Source: Cryobacterium algoritolerans (GTDB taxonomy: Bacteria; Actinomycetota; Actinomycetes; Actinomycetales; Microbacteriaceae). From it: DNA of 64,000 nucleotides. The notes under the pieces are model-generated. The model was not told where the DNA came from. It saw nothing but the letters and a program-made list of their open reading frames with translations, and made no database searches. Below, in pieces: positions 45,171 through 63,974 of this stretch. How positions within the stretch are numbered: the stretch's first letter is position 1; each line of letters begins with the position of its first letter. The stretch covers positions 1-64,000 of the forward strand of contig NZ_SOFP01000032.1 in NCBI RefSeq assembly GCF_004402785.1, in the 5' to 3' direction. Both the position numbers and the translations under genes were made by a program.

Positions 45171-45171
45171 G

Positions 45172-49470: not shown

Positions 49471-49510
49471 CCGGCGGCGCCGGCGCCGCCCGCCGGCGCT
49501 GGGCGATCGA

Positions 49511-49627: not shown

Positions 49628-49696
49628 ACCGCGAGGGGGCGCCCCGATCAAGTACATGCCGATAGGCTCAGCCTGTATCTAGGCTTGGGGGAGCGC

Positions 49697-51793
49697 ATGT
49701 CGGCAGGCGGATCGGCATGGAGCGAAGCGACGCGTCAACTGGCGCTCTCAGAAGCGCACGCACTCGCCGCTGAATCCTCGCGGGCCAAGGCCGCCAACTA
49801 CTTCGCCGCCGCCGACAGCGAGAAACGCATCGCCCACGTTCTCGCCCCTCTCGCTGCGGCTGGCTACCACTTCCTGCCCGATCGTCAGTGGCCTGGCAGC
49901 CGTCGCGCTCAGGTCGACATGGTCGTCGTCGGGCCGGGCGGCCTGTTCATCGTGGACACCAAGGCATGGAAGGACCCGATCATCGCGGCGGGCCGGGTGT
50001 TCCGCGGGCAAGCCGATGTCACCGACGAGTTCGACGGTCTGGCCGACCTCGCCTGGAAGACGGAGGCGGCTCTGGCCGAGATCGGCCTCGCCCCGGGCGA
50101 AGTGCGACCCGTTGTCGTTTTCGCCGGGCACAAGGGCGTCAACGCGTCGGTCGGCGGAGTCGAGATTGTCGGAGAAGGTGACATCGTGCGCCACATCGCC
50201 CGCCGCGGGCAGCGACTCACCACCTCTGCCGTCGAGCAGGTGTTGGCCGCCGCGATCACATACTTCCCCTTGATCGGCGCGCCGGCACCGCTCGATGTGA
50301 CCCTGCCCGAACCGATCATCGGCCCGGAACCGGCTCTCGATCTGGACCATCTCCCGAGCGAGAGCGACATCGAGGCCGCGATCCTCGAAGGCCTCCTTGC
50401 GCCTCCGATCGAGGAGTGGATGACGTTCCTGCATCCCGACCAGGCCAAGTTGGTGCGCCGCAGTTTCAACGGGCCCTCTCGCATCCGCGGGGCTGCCGGC
50501 ACCGGCAAAACCGTCGTGGGGCTGCACCGTGCCGCCTACCTGGCACGGTCACAGGCGAACGCCCGCGTGCTCGTGACCACTTACGTGCGCACGCTGCCCG
50601 ACGTGCTGAGCAACCTGCTCGGCCGCATGGCCCCGGATGTCGCGGGTCGCGTGGAATTCAGCGGCGTGCACCAATTCGCCCGCAGGGTGCTCGACGAGCG
50701 CGGCATCGACGTGCGCGTCAACACCAAGCAGGCCGATCTGTCATTCGACGAGGCCTGGAAGCAGACCTGCGGCCCGCTGACGAAAATCGACACGAATTCC
50801 CGTTACTGGCGGGAGGAACTCGACCACGTGATCAAGGGCCGCGGTCTGACCACCTTCGACGAGTACGCCGACTGTGCCCGCATCGGCCGGCGCCGCCGCC
50901 TCACCCTCGACCAGCGCCGCTCGGTCTGGGCGCTCTACCAACGCTACGAATCGCTGCTGCGCACTCGCGAGGTGCACGACTACGCCGACCTGATCCTGCT
51001 CGCCGAAGCGGCTCTGCGCGCCAAACCGATGGTCGGATACACAGCCGTCATCGTCGACGAGGCTCAGGACCTGTCGTGCGCAATGATCCGCATGCTCGCC
51101 ACCGTGGCCGGTGACGGCGCGGATGCCTTCACCCTGATCGGCGACGGCCAACAGACCATCTACCCCGGCGGCTACACCCTCGCCGAGGCCGGCCTCTCTG
51201 TCGCCGGCCGCGGAGTCATCATGGACGTGAACTACCGCAACACCGCCGAGATCCTCGCCCTGGCGGCCCGCGTCGTCGACGGGGGCAGCTACGTCGACAT
51301 TGAAGGCACCGCAGCCAGCGCCGCCGCGATCACCTCGCCGCGACACGGCGAACGTCCCCTCTTCGCCCAGGCGCGCACCCGAACCGAGCACGACGGCAAA
51401 CTGGTGCAGCACATCCGCCGGGCCACGCAAAGCGTGAGTGTGGGCTGGGGTGACGTGGGTGTGCTCTGCTCCACCACTTGGCAGGTGCGTGACGCGGTGA
51501 CGCTGCTCCGCACCGCGGGAATTCCCGTGGTCGAACTCACCGATTACGACGGTAGGCCAACGGATGCCGTGAAGGTCGGCACGATCAAGCGCGCCAAGGG
51601 GCTGGAGTTCAAGCAGGTGCTGCTGCCCTGGATCACCGAGCGCCTGATGTCCCCGGGCGTCATCGGAGAGGGGTGGACCGATTCCCAGATCGAACGCGAC
51701 GAGCGCGACCGCCGCGAACTGTTCGTGGGTATCACCCGAGCTCGCGACGGCGTCTGGGTCGGCTGCATCACGGCGCAGGGATCGTCTGCGTGA
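49697..51793 (+). CDS. NERD nuclease domain-UvrD-like helicase fusion
   Basis: A 698-residue protein. Residues about 40-170 form a NERD nuclease-related domain: ADSEKRIAHVLAPLAAAGYH, RRAQVDMVVVGPGGLFIVDT with the D-x-K (VDTKAW) pair. A superfamily 1 helicase follows: Walker A IRGAAGTGKTVVGLHRAA near 265, VIVDEAQDLSCAMI near 454, IGDGQQTIYPGG, DVNYRNTAEIL, VGTIKRAKGLEFKQVLLPW and ELFVGITRARDGVWVG. Such fusions are often in defence islands, although no specific system name can be given. ATG 49697 follows GGGGGAG. It is convergent with relBE and bracketed by the oxidoreductase 3'-end duplication. Confidence 0.87.
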   Translation: MSAGGSAWSEATRQLALSEAHALAAESSRAKAANYFAAADSEKRIAHVLAPLAAAGYHFLPDRQWPGSRRAQVDMVVVGPGGLFIVDTKAWKDPIIAAGRVFRGQADVTDEFDGLADLAWKTEAALAEIGLAPGEVRPVVVFAGHKGVNASVGGVEIVGEGDIVRHIARRGQRLTTSAVEQVLAAAITYFPLIGAPAPLDVTLPEPIIGPEPALDLDHLPSESDIEAAILEGLLAPPIEEWMTFLHPDQAKLVRRSFNGPSRIRGAAGTGKTVVGLHRAAYLARSQANARVLVTTYVRTLPDVLSNLLGRMAPDVAGRVEFSGVHQFARRVLDERGIDVRVNTKQADLSFDEAWKQTCGPLTKIDTNSRYWREELDHVIKGRGLTTFDEYADCARIGRRRRLTLDQRRSVWALYQRYESLLRTREVHDYADLILLAEAALRAKPMVGYTAVIVDEAQDLSCAMIRMLATVAGDGADAFTLIGDGQQTIYPGGYTLAEAGLSVAGRGVIMDVNYRNTAEILALAARVVDGGSYVDIEGTAASAAAITSPRHGERPLFAQARTRTEHDGKLVQHIRRATQSVSVGWGDVGVLCSTTWQVRDAVTLLRTAGIPVVELTDYDGRPTDAVKVGTIKRAKGLEFKQVLLPWITERLMSPGVIGEGWTDSQIERDERDRRELFVGITRARDGVWVGCITAQGSSA

Positions 51794-51821
51794 CCCGCCC
51801 AATCCCCAGCTGAATCCCGCG

Positions 51822-52079
51822 CTACTCGTACACGTCCCGGCGATGGCCGACGGTGACGACGACCACCACAAGGATGTCGTTGCGGATGGTGTAGATAATC
51901 CGATAGTTGCCCACCCGCACGCGATAGCCGTTCCGTCCGTGCAACGCTCTCGCCCCGGGCGGGCGAGGGTCTTCGCCCAGCAGGGCGATGGCGCCTTGTA
52001 CCCGGCCGCGATCCTGCGGATCGATGCGCCGCAAAGCTTTGACCGCTGCCGGGCGCACTTCGATCCGGTACTTGCTCAC
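51822..52079 (-). CDS. relE: RelE/ParE-family toxin
   Basis: An 85-residue RelE-fold mRNA interferase: YRIEVRPAAVKALRRIDPQD, ARALHGRNGYRVRVGNYRII then YTIRNDILVVVVVTVGHRRD. The basic and Tyr positions expected for ribosome-dependent cleavage are present (Lys/Arg in the first helix, Arg in YRVRVGNYRI, His-Arg-Arg near the end). GTG 52079 overlaps the antitoxin stop by 4 bp. Confidence 0.9.
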   Translation of the reverse strand: MSKYRIEVRPAAVKALRRIDPQDRGRVQGAIALLGEDPRPPGARALHGRNGYRVRVGNYRIIYTIRNDILVVVVVTVGHRRDVYE

Positions 52080-52324
52080 GTCCAGCCGAGGTCCGCTTTG
52101 ACCTGCTCCCAGGGAATGTTGTCGCCTTCGTCGGCCATCGCCGCATCAAACGCCGCGACATCCTCAGCATCCTCAAGCGCTTCTTGCATGCGCGCATATT
52201 GCTCGGGGCTCACCAGCACGGCAGCGACCTTCCCGCGACGCTCCAGGAAGACGGCTTCTGAGCGGGCCTGGGCGATCAACTCGGGTAGGCGCGCCCTGGC
52301 GTCGGTGACACTTGACTTCGACAT
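52076..52324 (-). CDS. relB: RelB/Phd-family antitoxin
   Basis: An 82-residue antitoxin: MSKSSVTDARARLPELIAQA, VFLERRGKVAAVLVSPEQYA match the Phd/YefM N-terminal dimer fold, and an acidic C-terminal tail (EDVAAFDAAMADEGDNIPWE) would cover RelE. ATG 52324 is the natural domain start; the extended frame upstream runs through the operator boxes. Confidence 0.88.
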   Translation of the reverse strand: MSKSSVTDARARLPELIAQARSEAVFLERRGKVAAVLVSPEQYARMQEALEDAEDVAAFDAAMADEGDNIPWEQVKADLGWT

Positions 52325-52331
52325 GCCGCAA

Positions 52332-52360
52332 ATGTACATCAACGTGATCGCGATGTACAT
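52332..52360. promoter_or_regulatory. Two ATGTACAT boxes upstream of relB
   Basis: The 8-bp palindrome ATGTACAT occurs at 52332-52339 and 52353-52360, 21 bp (two helical turns) apart, starting 8 bp before the relB start. This is the expected layout for cooperative autorepression by RelB/RelBE. Confidence 0.7.
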
Positions 52361-52485
52361 GTGCAGTGTCGGTCTGCAGCTGACAGCCGTCCACCCGCTT
52401 GCGGGAGCACCCATCGCGGATGCGCGAACCCTTGGGTTTGCCCGCGACGGTCAACTGAGTATCACCGGAGGCAGAGTCCCAAAGT

Positions 52486-53517
52486 TCACCCCACCGACAC
52501 GTCGATGAGCACCTTCCCGACCGCTCCGCTCTCGACCAGGGCGTGGGCATCCGCCGTGTGCGCGAGGTCGAAGCGGTGCAGCGCCAGCCCCGCCTCCTCC
52601 CCCACGGCCAGGGCGCCGTCGGCGAGCGCGGCGTTGATATCCTCGGCCGCCGCCCGGATCACGTCGGCCCCCACCGTGTAGAGCAGCACGAACTGGTAGC
52701 GCACGTTGAGGCTGAAGTGCCGGCGCACGTCGAGCGTCATCTGGTCGCCGCCGTTGTTGGCGTAGACCGCGATCGACCCGCGGTTGCGGATGACGGCCAG
52801 GTCGAGCTGCGCGTTCTGGGCGGGTGCGACCTCGACGATCTGGTCGACGCCCTCGGGCGCGATCGCTCGGATCTGGGCGACGATGTCCGGGTCGGTGTAG
52901 GTGAGCACGTGCTGCGCGCCGGCCGCCGTGGCGAGCGCCGCTTTCGCGGGCCCGCTCACGGTGGTGATGACGGATGCCCCCGCCCACCGGGCCAGCTGGA
53001 TCGCCGCGTGCCCGACCGCACCGGCTCCACCGGCCACGAGCACGACCTTGCCGGCCAGGGCGCCCGGCTGCAGCCGGCGCGGTCCGTCTTCGGCCACCGT
53101 CAGCGCGCGGTACGCCGTGATCGCCGGCACCCCGAGGCTGGCGCCCTGGTCGAAGCTCGCGCTCACCGGCAGTGGGAACACCCGCTCCGCGGGCAGCACG
53201 GACTGTTCCTGTGACGTGCCACTGTTCGCGCGCTGGTATGCGGCCAGCAAAAGCCACACCCGGTCGCCCACCGCGACGTGCGTCACGCCAGTGCCGAGCG
53301 CCTCCACGATTCCGGCGCCGTCCTGGCCGGGCACGACGTCGGCGAAGGCGAGCGCCTCGCCCGGCGCCGAGCCCCGGCGTGACTTCCAGTCGGTGGGGTT
53401 CACTCCGCTGACCACGATCCGCACCCGCACCTCGCCGGCTCCGGGTTCGGTCGCCGGCCGATCGACGAGGTGGAGCACGGACGGGTCACCGGTCTGGCTG
53501 TACACAATGGACTTCAT
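52486..53517 (-). CDS. NADP-dependent zinc-independent oxidoreductase (quinone reductase-like)
   Basis: A 343-residue MDR-family enzyme: MKSIVYSQTGDPSVLHLVDR, VVSGVNPTDWKSRRG, VPGQDGAGIVEALGTGVTHV, and the Rossmann loop VAGGAGAVGHAAIQLARWAGA near residue 155. The absence of zinc-binding Cys places it with the quinone oxidoreductase/zeta-crystallin group. ATG 53517 follows the family start. Its final 117 bp are mirrored by the remnant at 49511-49627. The promoter gap upstream contains GTTGA...TCAAC arms at 53541-53562. Confidence 0.87.
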   Translation of the reverse strand: MKSIVYSQTGDPSVLHLVDRPATEPGAGEVRVRIVVSGVNPTDWKSRRGSAPGEALAFADVVPGQDGAGIVEALGTGVTHVAVGDRVWLLLAAYQRANSGTSQEQSVLPAERVFPLPVSASFDQGASLGVPAITAYRALTVAEDGPRRLQPGALAGKVVLVAGGAGAVGHAAIQLARWAGASVITTVSGPAKAALATAAGAQHVLTYTDPDIVAQIRAIAPEGVDQIVEVAPAQNAQLDLAVIRNRGSIAVYANNGGDQMTLDVRRHFSLNVRYQFVLLYTVGADVIRAAAEDINAALADGALAVGEEAGLALHRFDLAHTADAHALVESGAVGKVLIDVSVG

Positions 53518-53653
53518 GTCAGGGGTAACGCGGGCGGGGGGTTGAATGTGTGTGTGATCAACTCTTTGTAGGCCGTCTCGGCGCTGGGCATGGGCCCTGG
53601 CAAGGTCCGTGCTTGGGAGAGCGATTGTGTACAAGCAACGCCGCCGGAAACCG
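53518..53653. promoter_or_regulatory. Promoter gap of the oxidoreductase gene
   Basis: Between the helicase stop and the oxidoreductase start there is one weak dyad, GTTGA (53541-53545) and TCAAC (53558-53562), with a TG-repeat spacer. No other signal is evident. Confidence 0.3.
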
Positions 53654-56551
53654 CTAAATCACGGGAGTCTTTGCCGCAAAGTACTCGTAGAGACTCGACT
53701 CGATTGGACTCGCCAGACCAAGCGTCATAGAGACAACGTCATGCCCACTCTTTCCGGACATTTTCGTCTGGCGAGCGTCTTGCGATGTCGCTCTGCCGAG
53801 ATAGTAGAAATCAGTGCCTTCTGCATCGTCCTTTTTGGCGAACACATGCAACGGGAGACGATTCTCAACAATCGCCTTCACCTCCCCACTCGCGAGTGTT
53901 CGTCTGCTCCGGGTGTGCCAAGTGAGGGTTGATGGGTTGAGAAACTCGTCCTCGTACTTCGTGCTCTCGGAGACCGCTGACCCCTTGTGGTACGTAACGA
54001 AAATGGGGCAACTGTCTGAGAAGGTGTCGACTTTGTATCCATAGATGGTGCTCTGCTGATTCGACTGCCAGTTGAGCAGCCGGCAGACATCCTTGCGAGA
54101 GTATCGTCGCCCGACCTCAAGCTGACCGCTCCAGTTGTAGCGGTGGCGCGCAAGGTACAACCCGGTATCGACGACATCGCGGACGTGCATTCTGAAAATC
54201 GTGTCCGTGTCCCATGCCATAGTGATTTTCTCGACGAGGCTGTAGGCCCCGTCCCGAAGTATGACGATCGGTTCCGCGCCGTACTTGGCGGCTTCTGCTT
54301 CGGTGAAAAACGTTAGGTCCAATACGGCCTGGACGGAATTGAGCGTCGGCGAATCGTTGACCAGCCCGCTCGCCGCGAGCAGATTCTGGTATCGCTCAAC
54401 CGTCACGCCCTTGGGGTGCGAGAGAAGCGTTTCGAGTAGGAGTAGCTCATGCGGCCGCTTGCCGTTGAGTAGTTCTCCGGAGAGGAATGTCAGGACCGCG
54501 CCCTCGAACGCTCCCGCCTGGACGTCGAGTGCTCCGACCTTGTTCAGAAATGTCCAGTAGTTCTTCTGTTTTGTCGCAATGACAGTTGGGTCGACGGTGT
54601 CGAAGCGGGCGAAGTCGATGAGCTGCGGCGATCGACCCAATCGGTTCTTGAGATCAACGAAGGATTTCTTGAGGTTTGACATGCTGTCGAGAGTTGTTGT
54701 CGCTAGGGAAGCGAATATCTTCTGCCTCGAAATCGCGTCAAAGTTGACACTCGAGAGTCCCGCAATCGCTCCAGCTTCTTGCGCATCGATGATCTTTTTG
54801 CGGATCGAATCTTTGTTCAGGGTGCTGTCGCCGAACAGCGCGATGGGGATCAAATAGTTGTTGGCATAGTTGCCGATGAAGTCGATCACTACGAGGTGGT
54901 CTTTGCCCGCGGCTTTTCGCAGTCCTCGACCCAACTGCTGGGTAAACACAATGCTCGACAACGTCTGCCGAAGCATTACAACCTGATTGACCGAGGGGAT
55001 ATCGATACCTTCGTTGAAAATATCAACGGTCGCGATGTAGTCGAGTTCGCCGCTTTCCAGCATCTGTACAGCCCGCTCGCGTTCCTCGACCGAATTGGCG
55101 CCGCTCAAGGCACGTGTTCGAAGGAGTTGCCCGTGGACAGCACGCTGATTGAGAATTCTGGACAACTCTGCAGCTTCGTCATTCTTGCTGCAGAAGATCA
55201 GCCCCTTGACCGGAGCACCTGCGTGGCCATACTTTTCAATCTGAGCAATGAGGTGGTCTACACGCTCGGTCGCGACCAGCCGGCTCAGATCCGCGACTTG
55301 ATCAATGACCTCTCCATTTTTCACGTAGTCGGTGACGCCGTAGTAATGGAATGGCGCCAACATGTCTGCCTTAAGGGCCTTCTGCAAACGGATTTCATAC
55401 GGCACGTTGTAGTCAAAGAGCTCGAACACGTTGAAGTCGTCAGTGCGCTCGGGGGTCGCGGTCATCCCGAGCAAGAAATCCGGCTGAAGGTGATCGATCA
55501 GCTTCCGGTAGCTCGCGGCACCCGCCCGGTGGACTTCATCAATCAAAACGTAGTCAAAAGTATCGGGGCTGATCTCGCGAAGATTCTCGGGCCGAGAAAG
55601 CGATTGAATCGATGCGAACACGTAGCGTCGATCGAGATCCCTCTTCGACCCGACGAACTTGCCAAAGTCGCTGTCTGGGGCATTGAGCACCAGCTTGAAC
55701 TCGTCGATTGCGCGGTCCAGAATCTGCTCGCGGTGCACGACGAAGAGCATCCGCTTGGGCGCGTATGCCCGAACGTCGAGCGCGGAAAGGATCGTCTTTC
55801 CTGTTCCTGTCGCCGATACGACGACTGCGCGATTCTCGCCTCCGTCGCGCAGGGTCTGTATCTCGGCCAGTGCTTCGACCTGCATTGAGTTCGCGACAAT
55901 CATTCCCCTCGGCGGCAGATCGCCAAGCGACTCCATCGATGCGGATGCTTGAAGCGGCGGCCGAGGCTGCAGAGCCCAAGTCAGCTCATAGTCGTCGATC
56001 CATTTCCGGGTCAGGGCAGTCGATGCTTCGATATGTGCGTGGGCCGCGGACTTCAGCTGGTGAACAATGTCCCCATCGGGGAGCGCGGAAAAGCGCAGAT
56101 TCCATTCGTGGTTTTTCAACAGCGCTTTTGCGGTCAAGTTGGAGCTGCCGACAATCGCTGTGGTGCTCTCCTCCTGCTCGAAAATGTATCCCTTCGCGTG
56201 GAACCCAGCTGTGGAGTCTGGATGCACGTAAACATCCACGCCCTTGAGGTTGAGGAGCTCACGGAACGCGGCAGGCGAGTTGAATCCGAGGTAGGTGGAC
56301 GTGATGATCGTGCCGGTTCCTCGGTAGTCGAGGAGTGATTGCTTGAGCAACGCGATTGCATTCGGTGTGATGAAAGCGACCGAGAATACGAAATTGCGCG
56401 ATCGCTTGAGCTCATCGAGGATCGCCTTGAGCATCGTCTGGCCATCGGAATTTGAAATCAGAGTGGGGTGGAAAACCTGATCAGCGTTGACGTGTGAGTT
56501 CAAGAAACCGAAAGTGTTGTCGAGCGTGAGCTGACTAGCGGTGTCACTCAA
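53654..56551 (-). CDS. PLD-nuclease/DEAH helicase/DUF3427 protein
   Basis: A 965-residue three-part protein. Residues 1-190 form a phospholipase D-type nuclease domain with one HxK motif (GFHAKGYIFEQEESTTAIVG, H118 and K120, then GSSNLT). Residues 215-560 form a superfamily 2 helicase: Walker A VSATGTGKTILSAL near 248, LIDEVHRAG, LLGMTATPERTD, FNEGIDIPSVNQVVMLRQT and QQLGRGLRKAAGKDHLVV. The last 400 residues correspond to DUF3427. TTG 56551 overlaps the Nudix stop (TTGA) and has AAGGAC 9 bp upstream. Codons are clearly less GC-biased than in neighbouring genes, a sign of transfer. Nuclease-helicase architecture and coupling to Nudix suggest a defence or DNA-damage role. Confidence 0.86.
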   Translation of the reverse strand: MSDTASQLTLDNTFGFLNSHVNADQVFHPTLISNSDGQTMLKAILDELKRSRNFVFSVAFITPNAIALLKQSLLDYRGTGTIITSTYLGFNSPAAFRELLNLKGVDVYVHPDSTAGFHAKGYIFEQEESTTAIVGSSNLTAKALLKNHEWNLRFSALPDGDIVHQLKSAAHAHIEASTALTRKWIDDYELTWALQPRPPLQASASMESLGDLPPRGMIVANSMQVEALAEIQTLRDGGENRAVVVSATGTGKTILSALDVRAYAPKRMLFVVHREQILDRAIDEFKLVLNAPDSDFGKFVGSKRDLDRRYVFASIQSLSRPENLREISPDTFDYVLIDEVHRAGAASYRKLIDHLQPDFLLGMTATPERTDDFNVFELFDYNVPYEIRLQKALKADMLAPFHYYGVTDYVKNGEVIDQVADLSRLVATERVDHLIAQIEKYGHAGAPVKGLIFCSKNDEAAELSRILNQRAVHGQLLRTRALSGANSVEERERAVQMLESGELDYIATVDIFNEGIDIPSVNQVVMLRQTLSSIVFTQQLGRGLRKAAGKDHLVVIDFIGNYANNYLIPIALFGDSTLNKDSIRKKIIDAQEAGAIAGLSSVNFDAISRQKIFASLATTTLDSMSNLKKSFVDLKNRLGRSPQLIDFARFDTVDPTVIATKQKNYWTFLNKVGALDVQAGAFEGAVLTFLSGELLNGKRPHELLLLETLLSHPKGVTVERYQNLLAASGLVNDSPTLNSVQAVLDLTFFTEAEAAKYGAEPIVILRDGAYSLVEKITMAWDTDTIFRMHVRDVVDTGLYLARHRYNWSGQLEVGRRYSRKDVCRLLNWQSNQQSTIYGYKVDTFSDSCPIFVTYHKGSAVSESTKYEDEFLNPSTLTWHTRSRRTLASGEVKAIVENRLPLHVFAKKDDAEGTDFYYLGRATSQDARQTKMSGKSGHDVVSMTLGLASPIESSLYEYFAAKTPVI

Positions 56552-56961
56552 ACGAGAAAGTCCTTCATGACGCGCTCGACTGCAGGAATGTCGGCGGGGG
56601 CCCAATCAAGCTGGTCAAGCTCAGCGGCATCTACCCAGCGAAGCTCCGCGTGCTCTGTCAGTCGAGGTTCCTTGCCGACGAGCGAGCAGTAGTAGGTCGT
56701 GAGGACGACAATGCCGAAGTCGTACTCGTGCTCGGTGGTCGCGACATGATCGCCAATTTCTGCGGAGCAGAGCAGCTCTTCATCGAGTTCGCGGAGCAAG
56801 GCCTGTTCCGGTGACTCGTTCGGCTCAATCTTGCCTCCCGGGAACTCCCACATGCCGGGCAGAGACATCGTCGAACTGCGCTGCGCCGCAAGAATTGTCT
56901 GCCCCCGAGTGAGGACAGCACCGACCACATTGATTCTCTTTTTCAAAGCGTGTCTCCCCAT
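56548..56961 (-). CDS. MutT-like Nudix hydrolase coupled to the PLD-helicase
   Basis: A 137-residue (deoxy)nucleoside triphosphate pyrophosphohydrolase. KKRINVVGAVLTRGQTILAA, MWEFPGGKIEPNESPEQALL and RELDEELLC give the full Nudix box (GX5EX7REUXEEXGU-like), followed by TEHEYDFGIVVLTTYYC and the C-terminal ELRWVDAAELDQLDWAPADI typical of MutT/8-oxo-dGTPases. ATG 56961 starts a few residues before the MutT-type KKRINVVGA. The stop is shared with the helicase start, so both proteins are probably made in a fixed ratio. Confidence 0.88.
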   Translation of the reverse strand: MGRHALKKRINVVGAVLTRGQTILAAQRSSTMSLPGMWEFPGGKIEPNESPEQALLRELDEELLCSAEIGDHVATTEHEYDFGIVVLTTYYCSLVGKEPRLTEHAELRWVDAAELDQLDWAPADIPAVERVMKDFLV

Positions 56962-57067
56962 TGCGTGGCCGTCGATTCGTATGGCCAGCTTAGCTAGCGG
57001 CGGTGAGCCGATGCCTGCCCCTTCTATCCTCGCGACATAGCACTGGCCCTGCTCACGTCGCTGGCTT

Positions 57068-58417
57068 CTAGGCAAACCGCACGCGCTCCGCGACGGTCGC
57101 CCGCAGGCGGTCAAGCTGCCATGTTGCACCCTCGTCCACACCGGGCAGTCCCTGCACCAGTGCCGCAGCCAGATGACTGGCCCCGACGACAAAGGTCGGC
57201 ATCGCTCCACCACCCAGTTGCTGGAGCCGGGTCTGGAGCAGTGCTGAATCCGCATAAACGAGGAGGGTCGCCGAGGCACCACCGATCCCCAACGTCTTGC
57301 CAACCTCCGCCAGGCGGGGCCGGAGTGTGTCGCGCACGTCGAGAACAGCGCGGCCGCCGTGCCGCAGTGAATCGTGCTCCACGGTCACCGGCCCCGCCTC
57401 GGCCATGGATTCGATCACGATCAGACCCTGCGGAGCGACTACTAAGTGATCGAACCGTGTGTGCCCCGCACCAAGTTCTACGTCGTGCCAGATCGAGAAG
57501 CGCGGGCCGACGGAAGCCAGCTCGCGGGCGGTGTTTTCCTGCGCCATGGCCCGGTCTAACCACACACGGATGCTCGGGGGCGCTACTCGCACGGCGTCCT
57601 CCGAGTACGGCGCCGCCAAGAGTGGTGCGGTGTTGGACGGCCGGGCACGGAGATCAATCTCGAAGGCCCTTTGCGCACGGCGGAAATCTGCCTGGGCCGC
57701 GGCAAACGTCGCGGCCTTTTCCTTCGCATATCGGATGAGTTCCCGGCGGTAGGAATCCCGACGCATCCGAAGTACTGAAACGGGCACGGAACTAATCGCC
57801 CCGGCGAAGCCGCCGAATCCGGCCACCAGGAGCAGCGGCATCCAGATTGCGGCGATGCCCTCCACGAGATGTCCCTGTCTCCAGGCAAGGAAAAGGACGA
57901 GGCCCGCTCCGACCGCAGCAAACGATGTCGTCATCTGCGCGCCCAGTCGCAGCCCTTGGCGGAGGAACCTGCCGCGCGCCGTGCGCGCCGGAACCCAGGG
58001 CACAGGCGGCGACGGAGGGGTGGGGTTGACCAGCCAGACGAGCATCAAATCACGGTATTTCAGGCGGAAACTTCCTCCGGGATGCCCCTGGCTGTCCGCA
58101 CGCCGCGCTCGTGGTCGTTCCTCGGCTGTCGATGGCCGAGTCGGTGTGCGGGACGTCTGACTCGTCGGTCCGACCCGCGGCTCAGCCGCACTGTGGTGAG
58201 CCGAACCGGCGCTCAGCGCACGGTCGTAGGCCGCGCGCCTGTCGGGGGTGCCCAGCGCGGCCCACGCGTCCTGCACAATGCGGAACTGCTCTGCGGAACC
58301 GCCGGTGTCCGGATGGCTGGTGCGCTGCATCCGTCGATAGGCACGCTTGAGCTCGTGCGCGCTGACGGATGCCGCCACGCCCAGCACGCCGTAATGGGTC
58401 GCTCCGGAGGTGGTCAC
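57068..58417 (-). CDS. J-domain/NERD-like membrane protein
   Basis: A 449-residue fusion. Residues 1-68 are a J domain (HYGVLGVAASVSAHELKRAY, RRMQRTSHPDTGGSAEQF with the HPD tripeptide), able to recruit a DnaK-type chaperone. A Pro/Arg-rich linker precedes FRLKYRDLMLVWLVNPTPP and two hydrophobic segments at about 160-215. The C-terminus resembles NERD (FSIWHDVELGAGHTRFDHLV, VAPQGLIVIESMAEAGPV), but the catalytic Lys of ExK is replaced (IESMAE). GTG 58417 opens the J domain. It lies 105 bp upstream of the Nudix start on the same strand. Confidence 0.78.
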   Translation of the reverse strand: MTTSGATHYGVLGVAASVSAHELKRAYRRMQRTSHPDTGGSAEQFRIVQDAWAALGTPDRRAAYDRALSAGSAHHSAAEPRVGPTSQTSRTPTRPSTAEERPRARRADSQGHPGGSFRLKYRDLMLVWLVNPTPPSPPVPWVPARTARGRFLRQGLRLGAQMTTSFAAVGAGLVLFLAWRQGHLVEGIAAIWMPLLLVAGFGGFAGAISSVPVSVLRMRRDSYRRELIRYAKEKAATFAAAQADFRRAQRAFEIDLRARPSNTAPLLAAPYSEDAVRVAPPSIRVWLDRAMAQENTARELASVGPRFSIWHDVELGAGHTRFDHLVVAPQGLIVIESMAEAGPVTVEHDSLRHGGRAVLDVRDTLRPRLAEVGKTLGIGGASATLLVYADSALLQTRLQQLGGGAMPTFVVGASHLAAALVQGLPGVDEGATWQLDRLRATVAERVRFA

Positions 58418-58475
58418 GTGAGCTGGGCAGAGACTCGACGCACCAGCTGCCCTATCAGCGTCTTCATGCCGCCGC

Positions 58476-58814
58476 TCACCGTTTCTTCCAGAGGAGCTTC
58501 GTCGTGCGAATGACGAAAGCGACTGCCGCCAGCAGGGTCGAGAACGTCAGCAGCATCTGTGCGACGGTTCCCATACTCACCAGCGTCGTCGAAGGCAGGG
58601 GCGGGTTGGTAATCCCGTACTGCCAGAGAAGGTATCCGCCGAGCGCGACGAGCACTGTCATTGCGAGAGCGGCGAGGAAGAGCTTCAGACCGTTGCTCCG
58701 AAGCACCTGCACCACGCCGTCCAGGAGAAACGAAGCAACAAACGGCAGCGGTACGGTCATCACAAGAATCCCGCCGTATGCCGCCAGCAGCGACCCGAAT
58801 CCGGTTATGTTCAT
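58476..58814 (-). CDS. Small membrane protein, three to four spans
   Basis: A 112-residue hydrophobic protein: SLLAAYGGILVMTVPLPFVA, LKLFLAALAMTVLVALGGYL, SMGTVAQMLLTFSTLLAAVA, with a basic end (RTTKLLWKKR). The start ATG 58814 has no clear ribosome-binding site. It is first in the co-directional run that leads to the J-domain protein, Nudix and helicase. No family recognised. Confidence 0.65.
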   Translation of the reverse strand: MNITGFGSLLAAYGGILVMTVPLPFVASFLLDGVVQVLRSNGLKLFLAALAMTVLVALGGYLLWQYGITNPPLPSTTLVSMGTVAQMLLTFSTLLAAVAFVIRTTKLLWKKR

Positions 58815-58859
58815 GCGTCAGTCCCCCAACTGTTAGTTCGTGTCTTTCTTGCGTTTGGT

Positions 58860-59093
58860 TTAGCCGCCGAGATGCCAGGTGCACGATCCGTCGTCCCAGT
58901 TCATCGTCGCCGAGAACTGGTAACCGCTCGAGGTCCCGTCGGCATTCTCCTTATTGATGGCCATGCAGGTGAAGGTCGTGGTGATGGCGGTGAGGTCATC
59001 CGTTGATCCACGGCCAACGGCGTACAAGACGATTTGGTGATCGGGTGCGTTGTCATTGCCTCGCGAAGAATCTTCGTCTGACGTGTTGCCAGC
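58860..59093 (-). pseudogene. C-terminal remnant of a secreted/cell-surface protein
   Basis: An open frame of 77 codons with no start codon in place, cut by a TAG at 59094-59096. It reads APDHQIVLYAVGRGSTDDLT, AITTTFTCMAINKENADGTS, QFSATMNWDDGSCTWHLGG, with two Cys that could form a disulphide and a beta-rich character. This suggests the end of an exported protein whose N-terminal part is gone. The 272 bp upstream hold no gene, only the repeat at 59237. Confidence 0.45.
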
Positions 59094-59236
59094 CTATGGG
59101 CGCTTCGGGGTGCAAAGTCGCCTGTGGTCTGGCTATCTGTCCCCAGTTCAGGGCAAATGGGCGGCCGAGGTCACGCTGAGGACAACGCAGACATATCGGT
59201 TTGCCGGCCGGTCGGACCTCGTCGCCCGAGGGGGCT

Positions 59237-59302
59237 GGTCTCGACAGGCTCGACCACCGACGGGCTCGACCGGCCGAGGGGCACTGGTCTCGACGTAGCT
59301 CC
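59237..59302. repeat. Second site of the GGTCGAG...CGAGACC dispersed repeat
   Basis: GGTCTCGACAGGCTCGACC at 59237-59255 is the reverse complement of the consensus seen upstream of gdh (33881-33984). A half copy (cgggctcgacc, 59260-59270) and a degenerate one (ggtctcgacgtagctcc, 59286-59302) follow. Confidence 0.75.
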
Positions 59303-59365
59303 AGCGGGAGTCGGGCGCCATCGCGAACGCGACCCGGTTCATCCGTGCCGTTGTCGCCGTGGCGG

Positions 59366-60793
59366 TCACGTTGACGCGGGCAGGGGCGCGATGTTCTGGT
59401 TCAGCCGGAAGAAGTTCTCCGGATCCCAGGTGCGTTTGAGGGCCCGGAGCCGGGTGTACTTTGCCTCGCCATACGCCTGCCGAACCCGCTCTTCGCCCTC
59501 GTCCATCAGAAAGTTCACGTAGACGCTGGTGTGGAAGGGCTCGAGGTCCGACCAGAAGTTGCGCACCCAGTCGCGTTCCCGGTCGAACCCGTCGGGGCCC
59601 TCCGTGGCGGCGGTGATGTTGAACGTGTGGCCGGCGGCTCGCCCGTGGAACGCTGTGTCGTCTGCGGCCACGCGGGCCGAAGCTCCCCCGCCCTGCCAGA
59701 TCGGGAATGCGGTCAGCGGCGACGTGATCCTGGCCGCGTGATCGGCCGTGATGTCGATGACCTCGTCGGTGAGCTCAGCGACATCGCAGGACCGCATGTA
59801 GTACCACCGGCCGGGCGGGTAGCTGGGGTCGAACATGGCCTGATGCTCCAGGAACGGCTTCGGCCGGCACAGATCCAGTACCGGGTGGCCGAACGCCTTC
59901 AGCGGCTTCATCACTTCTTCGCCGTCCTCCACCGACCCAGCGAAGCAGCTGACGACGGCGACGACGGGCTGTCCGCGCAGGTCGGCTGGCATCCAGTCGA
60001 CGTCAGGGGCGCGGCGGTGCACCACCATGGTCATCAGGTCGTCGGGCGCCTCGGCAATCCACTCGCGGTAGAACCGCAGCACCTTCGCCGACTCGGTCCC
60101 GGGCCAGAAGACCGGCCCGGCCATAAGGATCGGGCCGACCGGGTTCAGCCGGAACTCGAACTCGGTGACGATCCCGAAGTTGCCGCCGCCCCCGCGCACT
60201 CCCCAGAACAGCTCGGGGTTCTCACTGGCGCTCGCCCGCACGAACTCGCCGTCGGCCGTGACCATGCCGACCGACAGCAGCTGGTCGATGGTCAGCCCGT
60301 GCTTGCGCATCAGCCAGCCCAGGCCGCCGCCGAGGGTCAGCCCGGCGACACCGGTGTGGGTCACGATCCCCGACGGCACCGCGAGCGCGTGCTGCTGCGT
60401 GGCCCGGTCCAGATCTCCGAGCAGCGCCCCGGCCTGCACGCTCGCCGTGCGAGCTTCGGGATCGACCCGGATGCCGTTCATCGGCGACAGGTCGATGACC
60501 AGTCCGTCGTCGCAGACGGAGTGTCCGGGAAAGCTGTGCCCGCCACCGCGCACCGCCACCAGCACATCATTGCGTCGGGCGAAGCGGACCACGGCACTCA
60601 CGTCGTCGCGGGAGGCGCACCGGGCGATCAGGCCGGGGAATCGGCTGATCGAGCCGTTCCACACCCGGCGCGCCTGGTCGTAGGCCGCGTCGCGGGGTCG
60701 GATCAGCTCGCCGCGCAGGTGCGCGGCGAGGTCGGCGACCGCGCGCTCATCGACGTCGACGCGGCCGCCGCTGATCGTCGCCAGCATGGTCAT
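59366..60793 (-). CDS. FAD-linked oxidase, berberine-bridge-enzyme type
   Basis: A 475-residue PCMH-type FAD oxidoreductase. The FAD loop with the attachment His is VAVRGGGHSFPGHSVCDDGL near residue 82, then VIDLSPMNGIRVD, THTGVAGLTLGGGLGWLMRK, NPELFWGVRGGGGNFGIVTE and the C-terminal BBE motif AYGEAKYTRLRALKRTWDPE with NFFRLNQNI. The second attachment Cys of bicovalent members is absent, so FAD is probably bound through His only. ATG 60793 has AAGAGG upstream. Substrate unknown (sugars, aromatic or secondary metabolites in relatives). Confidence 0.9.
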   Translation of the reverse strand: MTMLATISGGRVDVDERAVADLAAHLRGELIRPRDAAYDQARRVWNGSISRFPGLIARCASRDDVSAVVRFARRNDVLVAVRGGGHSFPGHSVCDDGLVIDLSPMNGIRVDPEARTASVQAGALLGDLDRATQQHALAVPSGIVTHTGVAGLTLGGGLGWLMRKHGLTIDQLLSVGMVTADGEFVRASASENPELFWGVRGGGGNFGIVTEFEFRLNPVGPILMAGPVFWPGTESAKVLRFYREWIAEAPDDLMTMVVHRRAPDVDWMPADLRGQPVVAVVSCFAGSVEDGEEVMKPLKAFGHPVLDLCRPKPFLEHQAMFDPSYPPGRWYYMRSCDVAELTDEVIDITADHAARITSPLTAFPIWQGGGASARVAADDTAFHGRAAGHTFNITAATEGPDGFDRERDWVRNFWSDLEPFHTSVYVNFLMDEGEERVRQAYGEAKYTRLRALKRTWDPENFFRLNQNIAPLPAST

Positions 60794-61166
60794 GGCGTCG
60801 GCCTCTTCGCGTCCACGGAGTACATGGTAGAACCGGGTTAGGTAATGCGATAGTGCCGGGTAGCTGGTGCTCCGGCTGGAAGTCGGCCTCGGCCGCGAAG
60901 ACGGTCAGGATCTTGCCCGACGGCTGCCGGAACGTGCCGCGCCCGCGCAGCGGCACGTCGGGAGCCGGCACACCCATCTCCTCCGCGAATTCCCGACGGG
61001 CGGTCTCGAGCGGATCCTCGCCCTTGTCGTGCTCGCCCTTGGGAATGGTCCACGCGCCGGAGTCTTTTCGGGCCCAGAACGGGCCGCCCCTGCGCGCCAG
61101 CCAGACCTCCGGGGCGGCGTCGGCCGCGACCCGGTACAGCAGGATTCCCGCGCTCCGCTGGGGCAT
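60747..61166 (-). pseudogene. C-terminally truncated Nudix hydrolase gene
   Basis: The N-terminal two thirds fit a Nudix protein: MPQRSAGILLYRVAADAAPE, GGPFWARKDSGAWTIPKGEH then DPLETARREFAEEMGV with the complete Nudix box. After FAAEADFQP (about 60860) the family's C-terminal strand and FPEIDRAAWF-like segment are missing; the frame runs into the oxidase gene, 47 bp past that gene's start, and ends at 60747 in junk (CTPWTRRGRRHDHAG). Probably a deletion fused the two loci. The product may still be made, but the fold lacks its last strands. Confidence 0.7.
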
Positions 61167-61239
61167 CCGAACCTCCGATCGCCGGGGCGGTCACCACGCT
61201 GCGCACCCGCCGGAATGCTACCGCTGCGGGTGGGTGCTG

Positions 61240-61453
61240 GCGACGCTTCCCCCACCTCGACTCGCACGCCAACGCGCCCCGCGGGCTCGTGCGTTCCGCT
61301 CAAGCACTATCGCAGCGACGCGCGGGTGCGTTCGGTGATGCTCGAGATTCGCCGGGACGTCTACCTGGATAAAGCCACGGTGACGCTCAAGCCGGAGGGG
61401 TTCGGGTTGCTCCGTCGCTGCAGTGGCTGGTCGACCGGGTTGGGCGGGCGTGA
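61240..61453 (+). pseudogene. N-formylglutamate amidohydrolase C-terminal remnant
   Basis: The sense SCVPLKHYRSDARVRSVMLE then IRRDVYLDKATVTLKPEGFG is the conserved end of N-formylglutamate amidohydrolase, the last step of one histidine-degradation route. At about 61408 it continues in another frame as VAPSLQWLVDRVGRA and a stop at 61453. There is no N-terminal part upstream, where the truncated Nudix gene faces away. A relic only. Confidence 0.7.
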
Positions 61454-61576
61454 ATGCCGTCCGACTGAGTTGGGGCGGCGTTCCGAACTAGACGTCGTGG
61501 GTTTCGGCCGCCCGAGGGAAGGCATCCCCCTGGCGGCTCATCGAACGAAGACGATCTGTCATCACCGACCCACGGG

Positions 61577-61668
61577 GCATAACTCCTGCAGATTGGGTGG
61601 CGCGGCGGCCGGACCCGCGTGTTTCCGAGGTCTCCGGGCCAGCGTCTGCGAATCTGCAGGAGTTATGC
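61577..61668. repeat. 18-bp inverted-repeat element GCATAACTCCTGCAGATT...AATCTGCAGGAGTTATGC
   Basis: Perfect arms at 61577-61594 and 61651-61668 enclose 56 bp with no gene. The arms are AT-richer than the surroundings and each contains the palindrome CTGCAG. It sits in the 271-bp gap between the amidohydrolase relic and the malate synthase stop, which otherwise appears empty. It resembles a miniature, non-coding mobile element or a palindromic terminator. Confidence 0.85.
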
Positions 61669-61724
61669 ACATGTGCGGGGTGATGAGCCTGCCGGTGAGG
61701 TCACCCGAGGGGAAGGGGCAGCCG

Positions 61725-63974
61725 TTAGGCGAGGGCGGAGGAGAGTTCCGCCTTCTTCGCCTTTCGGATCTCGTGCAAGATCGGCTCGGTGTAGCCGTTG
61801 GGCGAGGATGCGCCGTCGACGATGAGGCGGCGCGCGGCCTGGAAGGCGAGCCCCGGCCCGTTGTGGCCGATCAGCGCCTCGTAGGTCGGGTCGCCGGCGT
61901 TCTGCGCGTCGACGACCGGGGCCAGCCGAGCAAGGCTGGCGTCGACATCCGTCTCGGTGATGACGCCGTGGGTGAGCCAGTTGGCGAGCAGCTGGCTGGA
62001 GATGCGCAGGGTGGCGCGGTCCTCCATCAGGGCTACGCCGTGGATGTCCGGCACCTTGGAGCACCCGACCCCCTGATCGACCCAGCGCACGACGTAGCCG
62101 AGGATCGACTGCACATTGTTGTCCAACTCGGTCAGGCGCTCCTCGCGGGTGAGGTCCCGCTCGCCGAGCGGGAGAACGAGAATCGGGTCCAGCGCCTGAG
62201 GAATGCGCCCGGCCAGTTCCCGCTGGCGGGCGGCCACGTCGACCTCGTGGTAGTGGATGGCGTGCAGGGTCGCGGCCGTGGGTGACGGGACCCAGGCGGT
62301 GGTTGCTCCGGAAAGGGGATGTGCGATCTTCTGCTCGAGCATGTCGTGCATGAGATCGGGCATGGCCCACATGCCCTTGCCGATCTGGGCCCGGCCGGGG
62401 AACCCCGCGGAGAGGCCCGCATCGACGTTCGCGTTCTCGTAGGCCGCCATGAAGGACAGGGCGCGGATCGCGCCCTTGGTGGCCACGGGCCCGGCGTGCA
62501 TCGACGTGTGGATCTCGTCGCCGGTGCGATCGAGGAACCCGGTGTTGATGAAGACGATGCGCTCCGCGGCGACGGCGATGCAGGCACGGAGGTTCAGCGT
62601 GGTTCGCCGTTCCTCGTCCATGATCCCCACCTTCACGGTGAGCGGGGGCAGGCCCAGGAGCTGCTCGACCCGGGCGAACAGGTCCACTGTGAACGCCACC
62701 TCCTGCGGGCCGTGCATCTTCGGCTTGACGATGTAGACCGAGCCGGTGCGCGAGTTGCCACCGCGGGTCTCGCCGGCAAGGTCGGGGATGGATCCGAGCA
62801 CGGTGAGCACCGCGTCGAGGATTCCTTCGAAGACGTCGGCGCCGGACGCATCCCGCACGGTGTCGGTTCCCATCAGGTGCCCGACGTTGCGCACCAGCAG
62901 CAGGCTGCGGCCGGGCAGGGTCAGCGTGCCACCGCCCGGAGCCGTGTAGACGCGGTCGGCGTTCATGGTGCGGATGAAGGTGCCGCCGCCCTTCCGCACG
63001 GTCTCGGTCAGCGTGCCACGCATCAGTTCACGCCAGTTGCGGTAGCCGAGCACCTTGTCGTCGGCGTCGACCGCGGCGACCGAGTCCTCGAGGTCCATGA
63101 TGGTCGTGACCGCCGACTCGAGCACGATGTCCTGGATGCCGGCGGTGTCCTCAGCCCCGATCGGTGCCCCCCGGTCGAAGATCACGTCGAGGTGCAGGCC
63201 GTGCTGACGGAACAGCACAGACGTCGGCGCCGCCGCCTCCCCGGTGTAGCCGACGAACGCCGAGGGGGCGGCCAGGGCGACGGATGCCCCGTGCCCCAGT
63301 TGCACGACCAGCCGGCCGTTGTCGACCTGGTAGGCCACGGCATCGGTGTGCGAGCCGCCCGACAGCGGAGCGGCCTGGTCGAGCAGGGCCCGGCCGCGCG
63401 CGATCACCCGTCGGCCGCGGACGGGGTTGTAGCCGCCCGCCCGGGTGGCGCCGTCGTCTTCGGGGATGGCGTCGGTGCCGTAGAGCGCGTCATAGAGCGA
63501 ACCCCAGCGGGCGTTCGCCGCGTTGACCGCGAACCGGGCGTTGAGCAGCGGGACGACGAGCTGAGGCCCGGCCTGGGTGGCGATCTCCGCGTCGACATTG
63601 GCGGTGGTGATGCTGAAGCCGGCGGGTTCGGGCTCGAGGTAGCCGATTCCGGTGAGGAAGGCGCGGTACTCGGCCGGGTCAGGCTGACCGGGGTATGCCC
63701 GGTGGAAGTCGTCGATCTGGGTCTGCAGGTCATCCCTGGTGCGGAGCAGCTCGAGGTTGCGCGGGGTAAGTTCGCTGATCAGCGCGCTCAGGCCCTGCCA
63801 GAAGAAATCCGCGGCGATGCCGGTGCCAGGCAGAGCTTCGTTCTCGACGAACGCGGCGAACGCGGCGGCGACGTCGAGGTCGGCACGGTCGACCCGGGAT
63901 TCGGCCCCAGACCCGGCCCTGGCGGAGAGGCCGGCGGCCGTAGCGGAAACTGGTGCTGAGACGGGCGTGTTCAT
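61725..63974 (-). CDS. glcB: Malate synthase G
   Basis: Condenses glyoxylate with acetyl-CoA to malate in the glyoxylate pathway. A monomeric 749-residue class G enzyme (class A is about 530). Landmarks: [38 protein letters not shown], the catalytic region [71 protein letters not shown], and the late Cys and Asp in [10 protein letters not shown] and [15 protein letters not shown] 63974 has AAGGAGCTC upstream, so the gene is complete, with its promoter beyond the window. No isocitrate lyase gene lies within the window. Confidence 0.93.

What the first reader, a model, noticed from the sequence alone, without database searches (positions are those of the whole stretch)
53654..58814. Co-directional cassette: membrane protein, J-domain/NERD-like protein, Nudix, PLD-helicase-DUF3427
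Four genes on one strand combine a chaperone-recruiting J domain with a degenerate NERD fold, a MutT-like Nudix, and a nuclease-helicase giant whose start overlaps the Nudix stop by 4 bp. The helicase gene is less GC-rich than its surroundings and lies about 12 kb from a Wadjet operon. A PLD nuclease plus helicase coupled to a nucleotide hydrolase fits anti-phage or damage-response systems, but I cannot assign it to a named one. The Nudix-helicase pair is the firm core; the two upstream genes may or may not belong.
Basis: partly seen in the sequence, partly recalled or inferred. Interest (0 to 1): 0.6.

Follow-up and report, generated by a model that had tools for sequence, protein, structure and literature searches.

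The report
Type IV restriction enzyme with Nudix partner
The two core genes are a bacterial enzyme that probably cuts DNA carrying modified cytosine (a relative of SauUSI of Staphylococcus aureus) and a small nucleotide-cleaning enzyme that nearly always travels with it, perhaps to keep the same modified cytosine out of the cell's own DNA; the two genes upstream do not belong.

Summary
[quoted passage not shown] The Nudix (56548-56961) matches PADLOC candidate PDC-S07 and lies nearest CTP/5-methyl-dCTP hydrolases; its top Foldseek hit is MutT2 with 5mdCTP. The pair is nearly obligate: 80 of 80 related loci, and 76 of 82 full-length cases among 348 Bacilli genomes, in three gene orders. The Nudix also abuts SauUSI in S. 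aureus, where it is the solved protein 5x1x. The J-domain and membrane genes are in 1 of 80 loci each. Best reading: the Nudix destroys C5-modified dCTP so that host DNA never gains the mark that the enzyme cuts. Parts and linkage are shown; substrate and role are inferred. A 2026 paper already reports PDC-S07/type IV co-localisation in S. suis (23/23). A parallel pair (second PLD-helicase with a MazG-like pyrophosphatase, 26 of 30 loci) hints at a wider rule.

The parts
53654..56551 (-). [quoted passage not shown]
   Evidence: PADLOC PDLC03658 mREase_IV 777 bits over residues 32-976 of the 983-aa ORF; PDB 7clg SauUSI 761 bits; catalytic and 5mC-pocket residues; start read
56548..56961 (-). 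NudG/MutT2-like Nudix hydrolase (PADLOC candidate PDC-S07); ATG at 56961, more likely start TTG at 56946
   Evidence: PADLOC PDLC04899 176 bits; PDB 5x1x 164 bits, NudG 2rrk 82 bits, MutT2 5zrc 81 bits; AlphaFold model pLDDT 93.5, top Foldseek hit MutT2-5mdCTP
56548..56551 (-). TTGA overlap of the Nudix stop and the nuclease start (translational coupling likely)
   Evidence: sequence
53673..57021 (.). block shared with other Cryobacterium copies (82% identical in L003; nearly the same span in L004): in effect the Nudix and nuclease genes; the likely mobile unit. The dehydrogenase gene on the 3' side is a separate shared piece (90% in L003).
   Evidence: blastn of window 45001-64000 against L002-L008
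57068..58417 (-). J-domain plus weak NERD protein: a neighbour, not part of the system
   Evidence: Pfam DnaJ and NERD; homologue in 1 of 80 loci
58476..58814 (-). small hydrophobic (membrane) protein: a neighbour, not part of the system
   Evidence: no family hit; homologue in 1 of 80 loci, not in the closest strain L002

Best explanation
A two-gene type IV restriction module. The large enzyme reads 5-methyl- or 5-hydroxymethylcytosine in incoming DNA with its SRA-like C-terminal domain, moves along the DNA with its ATPase and cuts with its PLD nuclease, as SauUSI does. The Nudix partner hydrolyses the free triphosphates of C5-modified deoxycytidine (5-methyl-dCTP, 5-hydroxymethyl-dCTP) to monophosphates. 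Modified nucleotides released when the enzyme destroys modified phage or plasmid DNA, or made by a phage, then cannot be built into the host chromosome and turn it into a target. It is self-protection at the level of the nucleotide pool, in a system that has no methyltransferase to mark self. Shown here: family and key residues of the nuclease, subfamily of the Nudix, near-obligate linkage. Inferred: the substrate of the Nudix and its protective role.
For: Nuclease identity; in 94 aligned rows (93 loci and the window, two loci being second fetches of the same contig) the PLD H, K, S, N and the SF2 residues checked are 94 of 94, and residues equivalent to SauUSI Y831, F841, D858, W868 are Y, F, D, W in 92, 94, 78 and 88 of 94 (roles from passages of PMC7913695). 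Linkage: 80 of 80 loci (69 upstream same strand, 9 downstream convergent, 2 downstream same strand); 4 of 4 full-length cases in 296 Actinomycetota genomes, these four also being the top four Nudix hits of that sample; 76 of 82 in 348 Bacilli genomes, and 80 of 82 holding the Nudix somewhere; in 30 of 30 genomes of loci the linked Nudix is the best hit. SauUSI itself: S. aureus record NZ_CP077890 has the Nudix 1 nt upstream, 100% identical over 128 aa to 5x1x, and the SauUSI frame 100% identical over 406 aa to 7clg. Of the six best plasmid records opened (of 23), five have the Nudix directly upstream. Repeated recruitment: linked Nudix of L019, L093/L094, L095 and L144 fall outside the main clade. 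Cytosine class: Asp124 (NudG D118; N in MutT) is D in 115 of 115 linked Nudix; NudG, MutT2, 5x1x and 3gwy have D, GTP-binding BdRppH has N; the Foldseek list is headed by MutT2-5mdCTP; NudG has kcat/Km 1300 for 5-methyl-dCTP against 47 for CTP in the table's units (PMC5158307 passage); [quoted passage not shown]
Against: No activity was measured. MutT2 also digests dCTP and other dNTPs. The same Nudix subfamily occurs in 43 of 266 Bacilli genomes without a full-length nuclease gene (in 5 of the 43 it lies beside a partial or broken DUF3427 gene), mostly beside ordinary genes but in three of 39 loci scanned beside other defence proteins: DISARM in L117, the second PLD-helicase and PDC-S41 in L118, PDC-S41 in L126; so it is not exclusive to this nuclease. 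D124 is D in 57 of 57 solo sequences as well, so it marks the class, not the pairing. Two of 82 full-length Bacilli cases (G533, G604) and the Fusobacterium copy L145 lack a detectable Nudix. In G484, G505 and G494 the Nudix is on another contig; in G454 too, but there the nuclease gene ends the contig. C5-methyltransferase genes occur in 29 of 82 nuclease-positive genomes, so cytosine methylation as such is tolerated. No host source of 5-methyl-dCTP was shown.
Confidence: 0.47

Rival explanations
1. Pincer against phages: the Nudix drains the phage's own pool of 5-hydroxymethyl- or 5-methyl-dCTP, so the phage makes either unmodified DNA, open to ordinary restriction, or modified DNA, cut by the SauUSI-like enzyme.
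For: The same substrate class is predicted and the same linkage holds. Both genes are PADLOC defence models. Three of 39 solo Nudix loci scanned lie beside other defence proteins, as a Nudix that acts on phage nucleotides by itself might. A review raises the 5hmdCTP pool as something a host could monitor (PMC12707154 passage).
Against: Solo copies beside defence genes are few (3 of 39 loci), while linkage to this one nuclease is 76 of 82; a phage-directed Nudix should go with many restriction systems.
Confidence: 0.23
2. Plain house-cleaning: the Nudix removes oxidised pyrimidine nucleotides (such as 5-hydroxy-dCTP) during infection or repair; it is carried along with the nuclease but not mechanistically coupled to it.
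For: Close to NudG and MutT2, which are pool sanitisers; stand-alone copies mostly among ordinary genes.
Against: Linkage in 76 of 82 cases with three gene orders and several independent recruitments is hard to explain without coupling; of 38 partial or low DUF3427 hits only 7, in 5 genomes, have a strong Nudix nearby.
Confidence: 0.17
3. The Nudix regulates the nuclease, by direct binding or by setting the level of a nucleotide cofactor or signal.
For: 4-nt gene overlap suggesting matched expression; SauUSI uses ATP or dATP (PMC3874153 passage).
Against: A single SauUSI polypeptide suffices in vitro and as a clone in E. coli (PMC3874153 passage); convergent gene order in 39 of 76 linked Bacilli cases argues against fixed co-translation.
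Confidence: 0.08
4. The four genes form one cassette (membrane protein, J-domain/NERD protein, Nudix, nuclease).
For: Same strand and short gaps.
Against: Upstream genes found in 1 of 80 loci each; the shared block ends before the J-domain gene; the J-domain gene has host-like GC, 0.675 against 0.557-0.587.
Confidence: 0.02

Closest known systems
SauUSI (Staphylococcus aureus type IV restriction enzyme, PDB 7clg)
   Same: Same domain order and near full-length alignment (residues 32-976 to 14-951, 761 bits); same PLD, SF2 and SRA-pocket residues. SauUSI too has the same kind of Nudix directly upstream.
   Different: The wedge residue M829 is Tyr in the window (Tyr in 77 of 94), so sequence context may differ. 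'Nudix' and 'MutT' do not occur in the main texts searched by word (PMC7913695, PMC3874153, PMC12707154, PMC12839542).
PADLOC PDC-S07 (phage defence candidate, single gene)
   Same: The Nudix matches this model (176 bits); a paper on S. suis reports it co-localised with RM type IV in 23 of 23 occurrences (PMC12813430 passage).
   Different: It is filed there as a separate candidate; here it is read as half of a two-gene system, with a proposed substrate. In an S. thermophilus paper it is listed for two strains; the passages seen show no test of it (PMC11514479).
E. coli NudG (Orf135) and Mycobacterium MutT2, CTP/5-methyl-dCTP pyrophosphohydrolases
   Same: Nearest solved relatives by sequence after 5x1x; Nudix box, W38, H104 and D124 shared; MutT2 heads the fold search.
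   Different: Below the NCBIfam cut-off for NudG (105.6 against 156). That those two are housekeeping genes not tied to a nuclease is recalled; for nudG the neighbours seen in MG1655 are ynjF and ynjH.
5x1x, 'MutT' of methicillin-resistant S. aureus (NMR structure)
   Same: 164 bits by sequence, 59% identical in the structural alignment; it is the Nudix beside SauUSI.
   Different: Titled as a mismatch-repair MutT in the PDB; no function tied to restriction was seen here.

Membership tests
SauUSI-family type IV restriction enzyme | N-terminal PLD nuclease with HxK and partner S, N residues | tested here: met
   H136, K138, S154, N156 in the window; 94 of 94 rows. The following E126 of SauUSI is E in the window but in only 28 of 94.
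SauUSI-family type IV restriction enzyme | SF2 translocase motifs (SATGTGKT, DEVH, QQLGRGLR) | tested here: met
   residues checked are 94 of 94; Pfam ResIII and Helicase_C
SauUSI-family type IV restriction enzyme | SRA-like DUF3427 target domain with a 5mC pocket (Y831, F841, I842, D858, W868) | tested here: met
   window Y857, F869, V870, D886, W896; DUF3427 2.3e-81 over positions 1-279 of 280; wedge M829 is Tyr
SauUSI-family type IV restriction enzyme | no cognate methyltransferase gene beside it | tested here: met
   no methyltransferase family among the ORFs scanned with Pfam between 42725 and 63974 (some small or overlapping ORFs were not scanned)
SauUSI-family type IV restriction enzyme | ATP-dependent cleavage of S5mCNGS or 5hmC DNA | not testable with these tools
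   needs a cleavage assay
PADLOC PDC-S07 | match to model PDLC04899 | tested here: met
   175.7 bits, positions 3-130 of 135
NudG (NF007834) equivalog | score above curated cut-off | tested here: not met
   105.6 bits, cut-off 156; so not filed as NudG, only as NudG/MutT2-like
CTP/5-methyl-dCTP class of Nudix hydrolases | Nudix box and Asp at the base-contact position (D118 of NudG; its role is recalled from memory) | tested here: met
   box residues and D124 in 115 of 115 linked; D in NudG, MutT2, 5x1x, 3gwy, N in MutT and BdRppH
CTP/5-methyl-dCTP class of Nudix hydrolases | measured hydrolysis of 5-methyl-dCTP | not testable with these tools
   needs an enzyme assay
MutT, 8-oxo-dGTP diphosphatase (TIGR00586) | score above cut-off and Asn at the base position | tested here: not met
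   68.3 bits, cut-off 97.9; Asp, not Asn
DISARM (DrmC) and other PADLOC PLD or helicase systems | strong full-length match of the window nuclease to the model | tested here: not met
   DrmC 18.7 bits, BrxHI 18.5, PbeA 109.6 with best stretch 445-577 only

The most novel reading that the evidence does not exclude
SauUSI-type restriction is a two-component immune module whose self/non-self discrimination works at the nucleotide pool: a dedicated Nudix destroys C5-modified dCTP so that the host genome can never carry the mark that the nuclease attacks. The same logic recurs with an unrelated fold: a second PLD-SF2 nuclease has a MazG/PRA-PH-type pyrophosphatase upstream in 26 of 30 loci, and in two Lactobacillaceae plasmids the SauUSI-like gene is flanked by both kinds.
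Probability: 0.38. Interest if true: 0.82.

Novelty: new variant of a known kind. Interest (0 to 1): 0.6.

Why it matters
SauUSI is a major barrier to gene transfer into S. aureus and is treated as a single enzyme in the papers seen here. If its constant neighbour is a modified-dCTP hydrolase, type IV systems have an overlooked partner that explains how a cell can live with a nuclease that has no methyltransferase to mark self. It would give a biochemical role to a defence candidate known only by number (PDC-S07) and to a solved structure without an assigned role here (5x1x), and it predicts that nucleotide-pool enzymes beside nucleases are a general safety device.

Tried and rejected
Four-gene cassette: rejected, upstream genes in 1 of 80 loci each. 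Named systems other than type IV (DISARM, BREX helicase, PbeA): only partial or weak matches for the window nuclease. MutT (8-oxo-dGTP) assignment: rejected on score and on the base-contact residue. Other partners for the solo Nudix: of 46 unlinked strong Nudix in the Bacilli sample, 40 were fetched as L101-L140 and 4 as L167-L169 and L180; G454:C48 and G442:C18 were not fetched, and the neighbours of the last four were not read. Neighbours were first judged by eye from the first 60 residues (output cut; the missing loci seen), which found no restriction gene. A PADLOC scan of 79 neighbours from 39 of those 40 loci (two nearest ORFs of 110 aa or more in most, three in L117 and L118; L140 left out) corrected this: full-length defence proteins stand beside the Nudix in L117 (DrmB, DrmA), L118 (second PLD-helicase, PDC-S41) and L126 (PDC-S41), while an SNF2 helicase in L125 and DEAD-box helicases match only motor parts (L126 identified). 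In G453 a C5-methyltransferase gene lies about 3.6 kb from the solo Nudix. Viral contigs: one scan gave 2 partial relatives (31% over residues 350-579, 58% over 527-579), no phage-borne copy of the pair. AlphaFold model of the second PLD-helicase: low confidence (pLDDT 64, pTM 0.35), so no fold search was run on it and its target domain stays unknown. Xu et al. 2011, the first SauUSI paper, is not held and was not seen.

The 140-bit limit for a strong Nudix was set by me at a gap in the list (140.7, then 114.7). Full length means at least 130 bits, starting by position 10 and ending at 270 or later. The names Actinomycetota and Bacilli for the two samples are recalled; the tools say phylum of G000 and class of G309. 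Fisher tests are not corrected for phylogeny. The tree rests on about 130 residues and many supports are moderate. The 30 loci are the best matches of a 279-genome search, not a random draw; in 25 the pyrophosphatase overlaps or abuts, in L195 it lies about 900 bases off, and 4 have none found.


Full report
WHAT IS THERE. The largest encodes PLD, SF2 helicase and DUF3427 domains. Its start is a TTG at 56551 that overlaps the TGA of the Nudix gene by four bases. The two core genes have GC 0.557 and 0.587, against 0.675-0.714 for the J-domain, NERD-helicase, 59366-60793 and dehydrogenase genes; the small membrane gene has 0.599. The window is from Cryobacterium or a near relative: the best match is Cryobacterium sp. 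PH31-AA6, 95% identical in protein. A type II Wadjet operon lies 11.4 kb away and a NERD-UvrD helicase gene about 2 kb away (49583-51793).

THE NUCLEASE IS A SauUSI-FAMILY TYPE IV ENZYME. PADLOC's type IV methyl-directed model PDLC03658 scores 777 bits over residues 32-976. The structure of S. aureus SauUSI (7clg) scores 761 bits over the same length, and the next solved relative only 77 bits. PMC7913695 (passages seen) describes the SauUSI PLD motif with H119, and a modelled 5mC pocket of Y831, F841, I842, D858 and W868 with M829 as wedge. In 93 aligned loci plus the window, the PLD H, K, S and N and the SF2 residues checked are 94 of 94. The equivalents of Y831, F841, D858 and W868 are kept in 92, 94, 78 and 88 of 94. 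In the window all four are kept, I842 is Val and M829 is Tyr. So modification-dependent cutting is very likely, while the sequence context of the target may differ.

THE NUDIX BELONGS TO THE NudG/MutT2 CLASS. It matches PADLOC's candidate PDC-S07 (176 bits). Its best NCBIfam model is NudG, but below the cut-off (105.6 against 156), and MutT is also below its cut-off (68.3 against 97.9). Nearest solved proteins by sequence are 5x1x, NudG (2rrk), MutT2 (5zrc), a putative CTP pyrophosphohydrolase (3gwy) and BdRppH (3ees). An AlphaFold model (pLDDT 93.5) has MutT2 bound to 5mdCTP as first Foldseek hit; BdRppH, solved with GTP, is third. One residue separates these: Asp124 is D in 115 of 115 nuclease-linked Nudix, in NudG and in MutT2, and N in MutT; 5x1x and 3gwy have D and BdRppH has N. 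That this position contacts the base is recalled, not from a call. NudG has kcat/Km 1300 for 5-methyl-dCTP against 47 for CTP in the units of the table (PMC5158307, passage); [quoted passage not shown]

THE PAIR IS NEARLY OBLIGATE. Starting from the nuclease alone, 80 loci were taken (the best 80 of 568). The Nudix is within 2.7 kb in 80 of 80: 69 upstream on the same strand, 9 downstream and convergent, 2 downstream on the same strand. The J-domain protein is in 1 of 80 and the membrane protein in 1 of 80. In 296 Actinomycetota genomes, 4 have a full-length DUF3427 (over 200 bits); all 4 have the Nudix beside it, and these are the four best Nudix hits of the sample. In 348 Bacilli genomes, 82 have a full-length DUF3427. 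In 76 of 82 a strong Nudix lies within 8 kb (33 upstream same strand, 39 downstream opposite, 4 downstream same). Four more have it on another contig (in G454 the nuclease gene itself ends its contig) and two (G533, G604) lack it. Strong Nudix without a full-length nuclease gene occurs in 43 of 266, in 5 of them beside a partial or broken DUF3427 gene. As a control, of 38 partial or low DUF3427 hits, 7 hits in those 5 genomes have a strong Nudix nearby. In 30 genomes that hold loci the linked Nudix is the best hit in 30 of 30 (136-194 bits); apart from a second strong one in G323 (147 bits), other listed hits score 108 bits or less.

SOLO COPIES. The unlinked Nudix copies stand mostly among ordinary genes, but a PADLOC scan of 79 neighbours from 39 loci found full-length defence proteins in three: DISARM DrmB and DrmA in L117, the second PLD-helicase and PDC-S41 in L118, PDC-S41 in L126. 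So the Nudix is not exclusive to the SauUSI-like enzyme.

SauUSI ITSELF HAS IT. An S. aureus record (NZ_CP077890, a 30-kb linear record with an inverted duplication) carries a '(deoxy)nucleoside triphosphate pyrophosphohydrolase' one base upstream of SauUSI. Over the stretches compared, the two are 100% identical to the solved chains 5x1x (128 aa) and 7clg (406 aa). Both SauUSI copies in that record are interrupted. So two solved structures are neighbours in the genome. I saw no paper that says so: PMC7913695, PMC3874153, PMC12707154 and PMC12839542 contain neither 'Nudix' nor 'MutT' in the main text, and searches showed none in their listings; of the 52 papers that name SauUSI I looked inside only those four. 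Prior art does exist under other labels: in S. suis, PDC-S07 and RM type IV were consistently co-localised, 23 of 23 (PMC12813430, passage). Of the six best plasmid records opened (of 23 with a match), five have the Nudix directly upstream: L. plantarum, L. curvatus, L. fermentum (nuclease frame broken), Hymenobacter and the S. aureus record; the Fusobacterium copy (L145) has none within the 4 kb fetched on each side.

INDEPENDENT RECRUITMENT. In a tree of 176 distinct Nudix sequences, most linked Nudix fall in one clade mixed with solo copies, with repeated changes of gene order. The linked Nudix of L019, of L093/L094, of L095 and of Hymenobacter (L144) lie outside it; L019 pairs with a solo Nudix of a genome of the window's own family (L088 from G225, support 0.96). 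Supports are moderate. The picture is that the nuclease has picked up a Nudix of this class several times.

MECHANISM. Type IV enzymes have no methyltransferase, so self is simply DNA without the mark. The weak point is the nucleotide pool: C5-modified deoxycytidine from digested phage or plasmid DNA, or made by a phage, would mark the chromosome once it is built in. A hydrolase of C5-modified dCTP beside the nuclease closes that gap. DCTPP1, of the all-alpha pyrophosphatase superfamily, hydrolyses C5-modified dCTP, and DCTPP1-deficient cells are hypersensitive to 5-methyl-deoxycytidine (PMC7162842, passage), which shows that such a route can matter in a cell. Bacilli genomes with the nuclease also have C5-methyltransferase genes less often (29 of 82 against 148 of 266), as expected if cytosine methylation and the enzyme conflict, though phylogeny is not controlled and a third of them do have one. 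The main rival is that the Nudix acts on the phage's pool; the solo copies beside other defence genes speak for it. The substrate, and which of the two roles holds, are inferred.

A PARALLEL CASE. Ten loci hold a second PLD-SF2 nuclease of about 815 aa without DUF3427 beside a MazG-like/PRA-PH protein. In a separate search of 279 Bacilli genomes, 26 of the 30 best loci have that protein upstream on the same strand, 25 overlapping or abutting and one about 900 bases away. That is a different fold from Nudix with a related reaction. The target domain of this nuclease could not be modelled, so whether it reads modified bases is open.

VERDICT. New variant of a known kind; interest 0.6.

Noticed in passing
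L027:8910-11670 (also L024, L028, L034, L039, L045, L050, L054, L072, L118; L182-L211): A second PLD-SF2 nuclease of about 815 aa without DUF3427, with a MazG-like/PRA-PH pyrophosphatase gene upstream in 26 of 30 loci, overlapping or abutting in 25; in nine loci it lies near the SauUSI-Nudix pair.
   Followed up: partly
L142:6898-7218 and L146:6512-6823: In two Lactobacillaceae plasmids the SauUSI-like gene is flanked by the Nudix upstream and a MazG-like pyrophosphatase downstream.
   Followed up: partly
L117, L118, L126: Solo NudG-like Nudix genes beside other defence proteins: DISARM DrmB/DrmA (L117), PDC-S41 and the second PLD-helicase (L118), PDC-S41 (L126).
   Followed up: partly
33999-42275: Type II Wadjet operon jetA-jetD on the minus strand.
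   Followed up: yes
49583-51793: NERD-UvrD helicase gene; best PADLOC hit C3a187 at 98 bits, also GajB-like. Present in L002 (95% identical), no hit in the other Cryobacterium loci L003-L006.
   Followed up: no
51822-52079 (-) and 42725-43180 (-): Small toxin-like genes: a ParE-family protein and a PIN-domain protein (Pfam), so the stretch between Wadjet and the restriction pair looks like a defence and toxin-antitoxin neighbourhood.
   Followed up: no
348 Bacilli genomes: C5-cytosine methyltransferase genes (PF00145) are rarer in genomes with a full-length SauUSI-like enzyme: 29 of 82 against 148 of 266.
   Followed up: partly
L173:5093-8832 and L174:2482-6221: The two Bacilli genomes whose SauUSI-like gene lacks any strong Nudix have an exonuclease III-like gene directly upstream (judged by eye).
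   Followed up: no
L007: A MAG labelled Oxalobacteraceae carries a copy 74% identical to the window protein; either recent transfer or a mis-binned contig.
   Followed up: no
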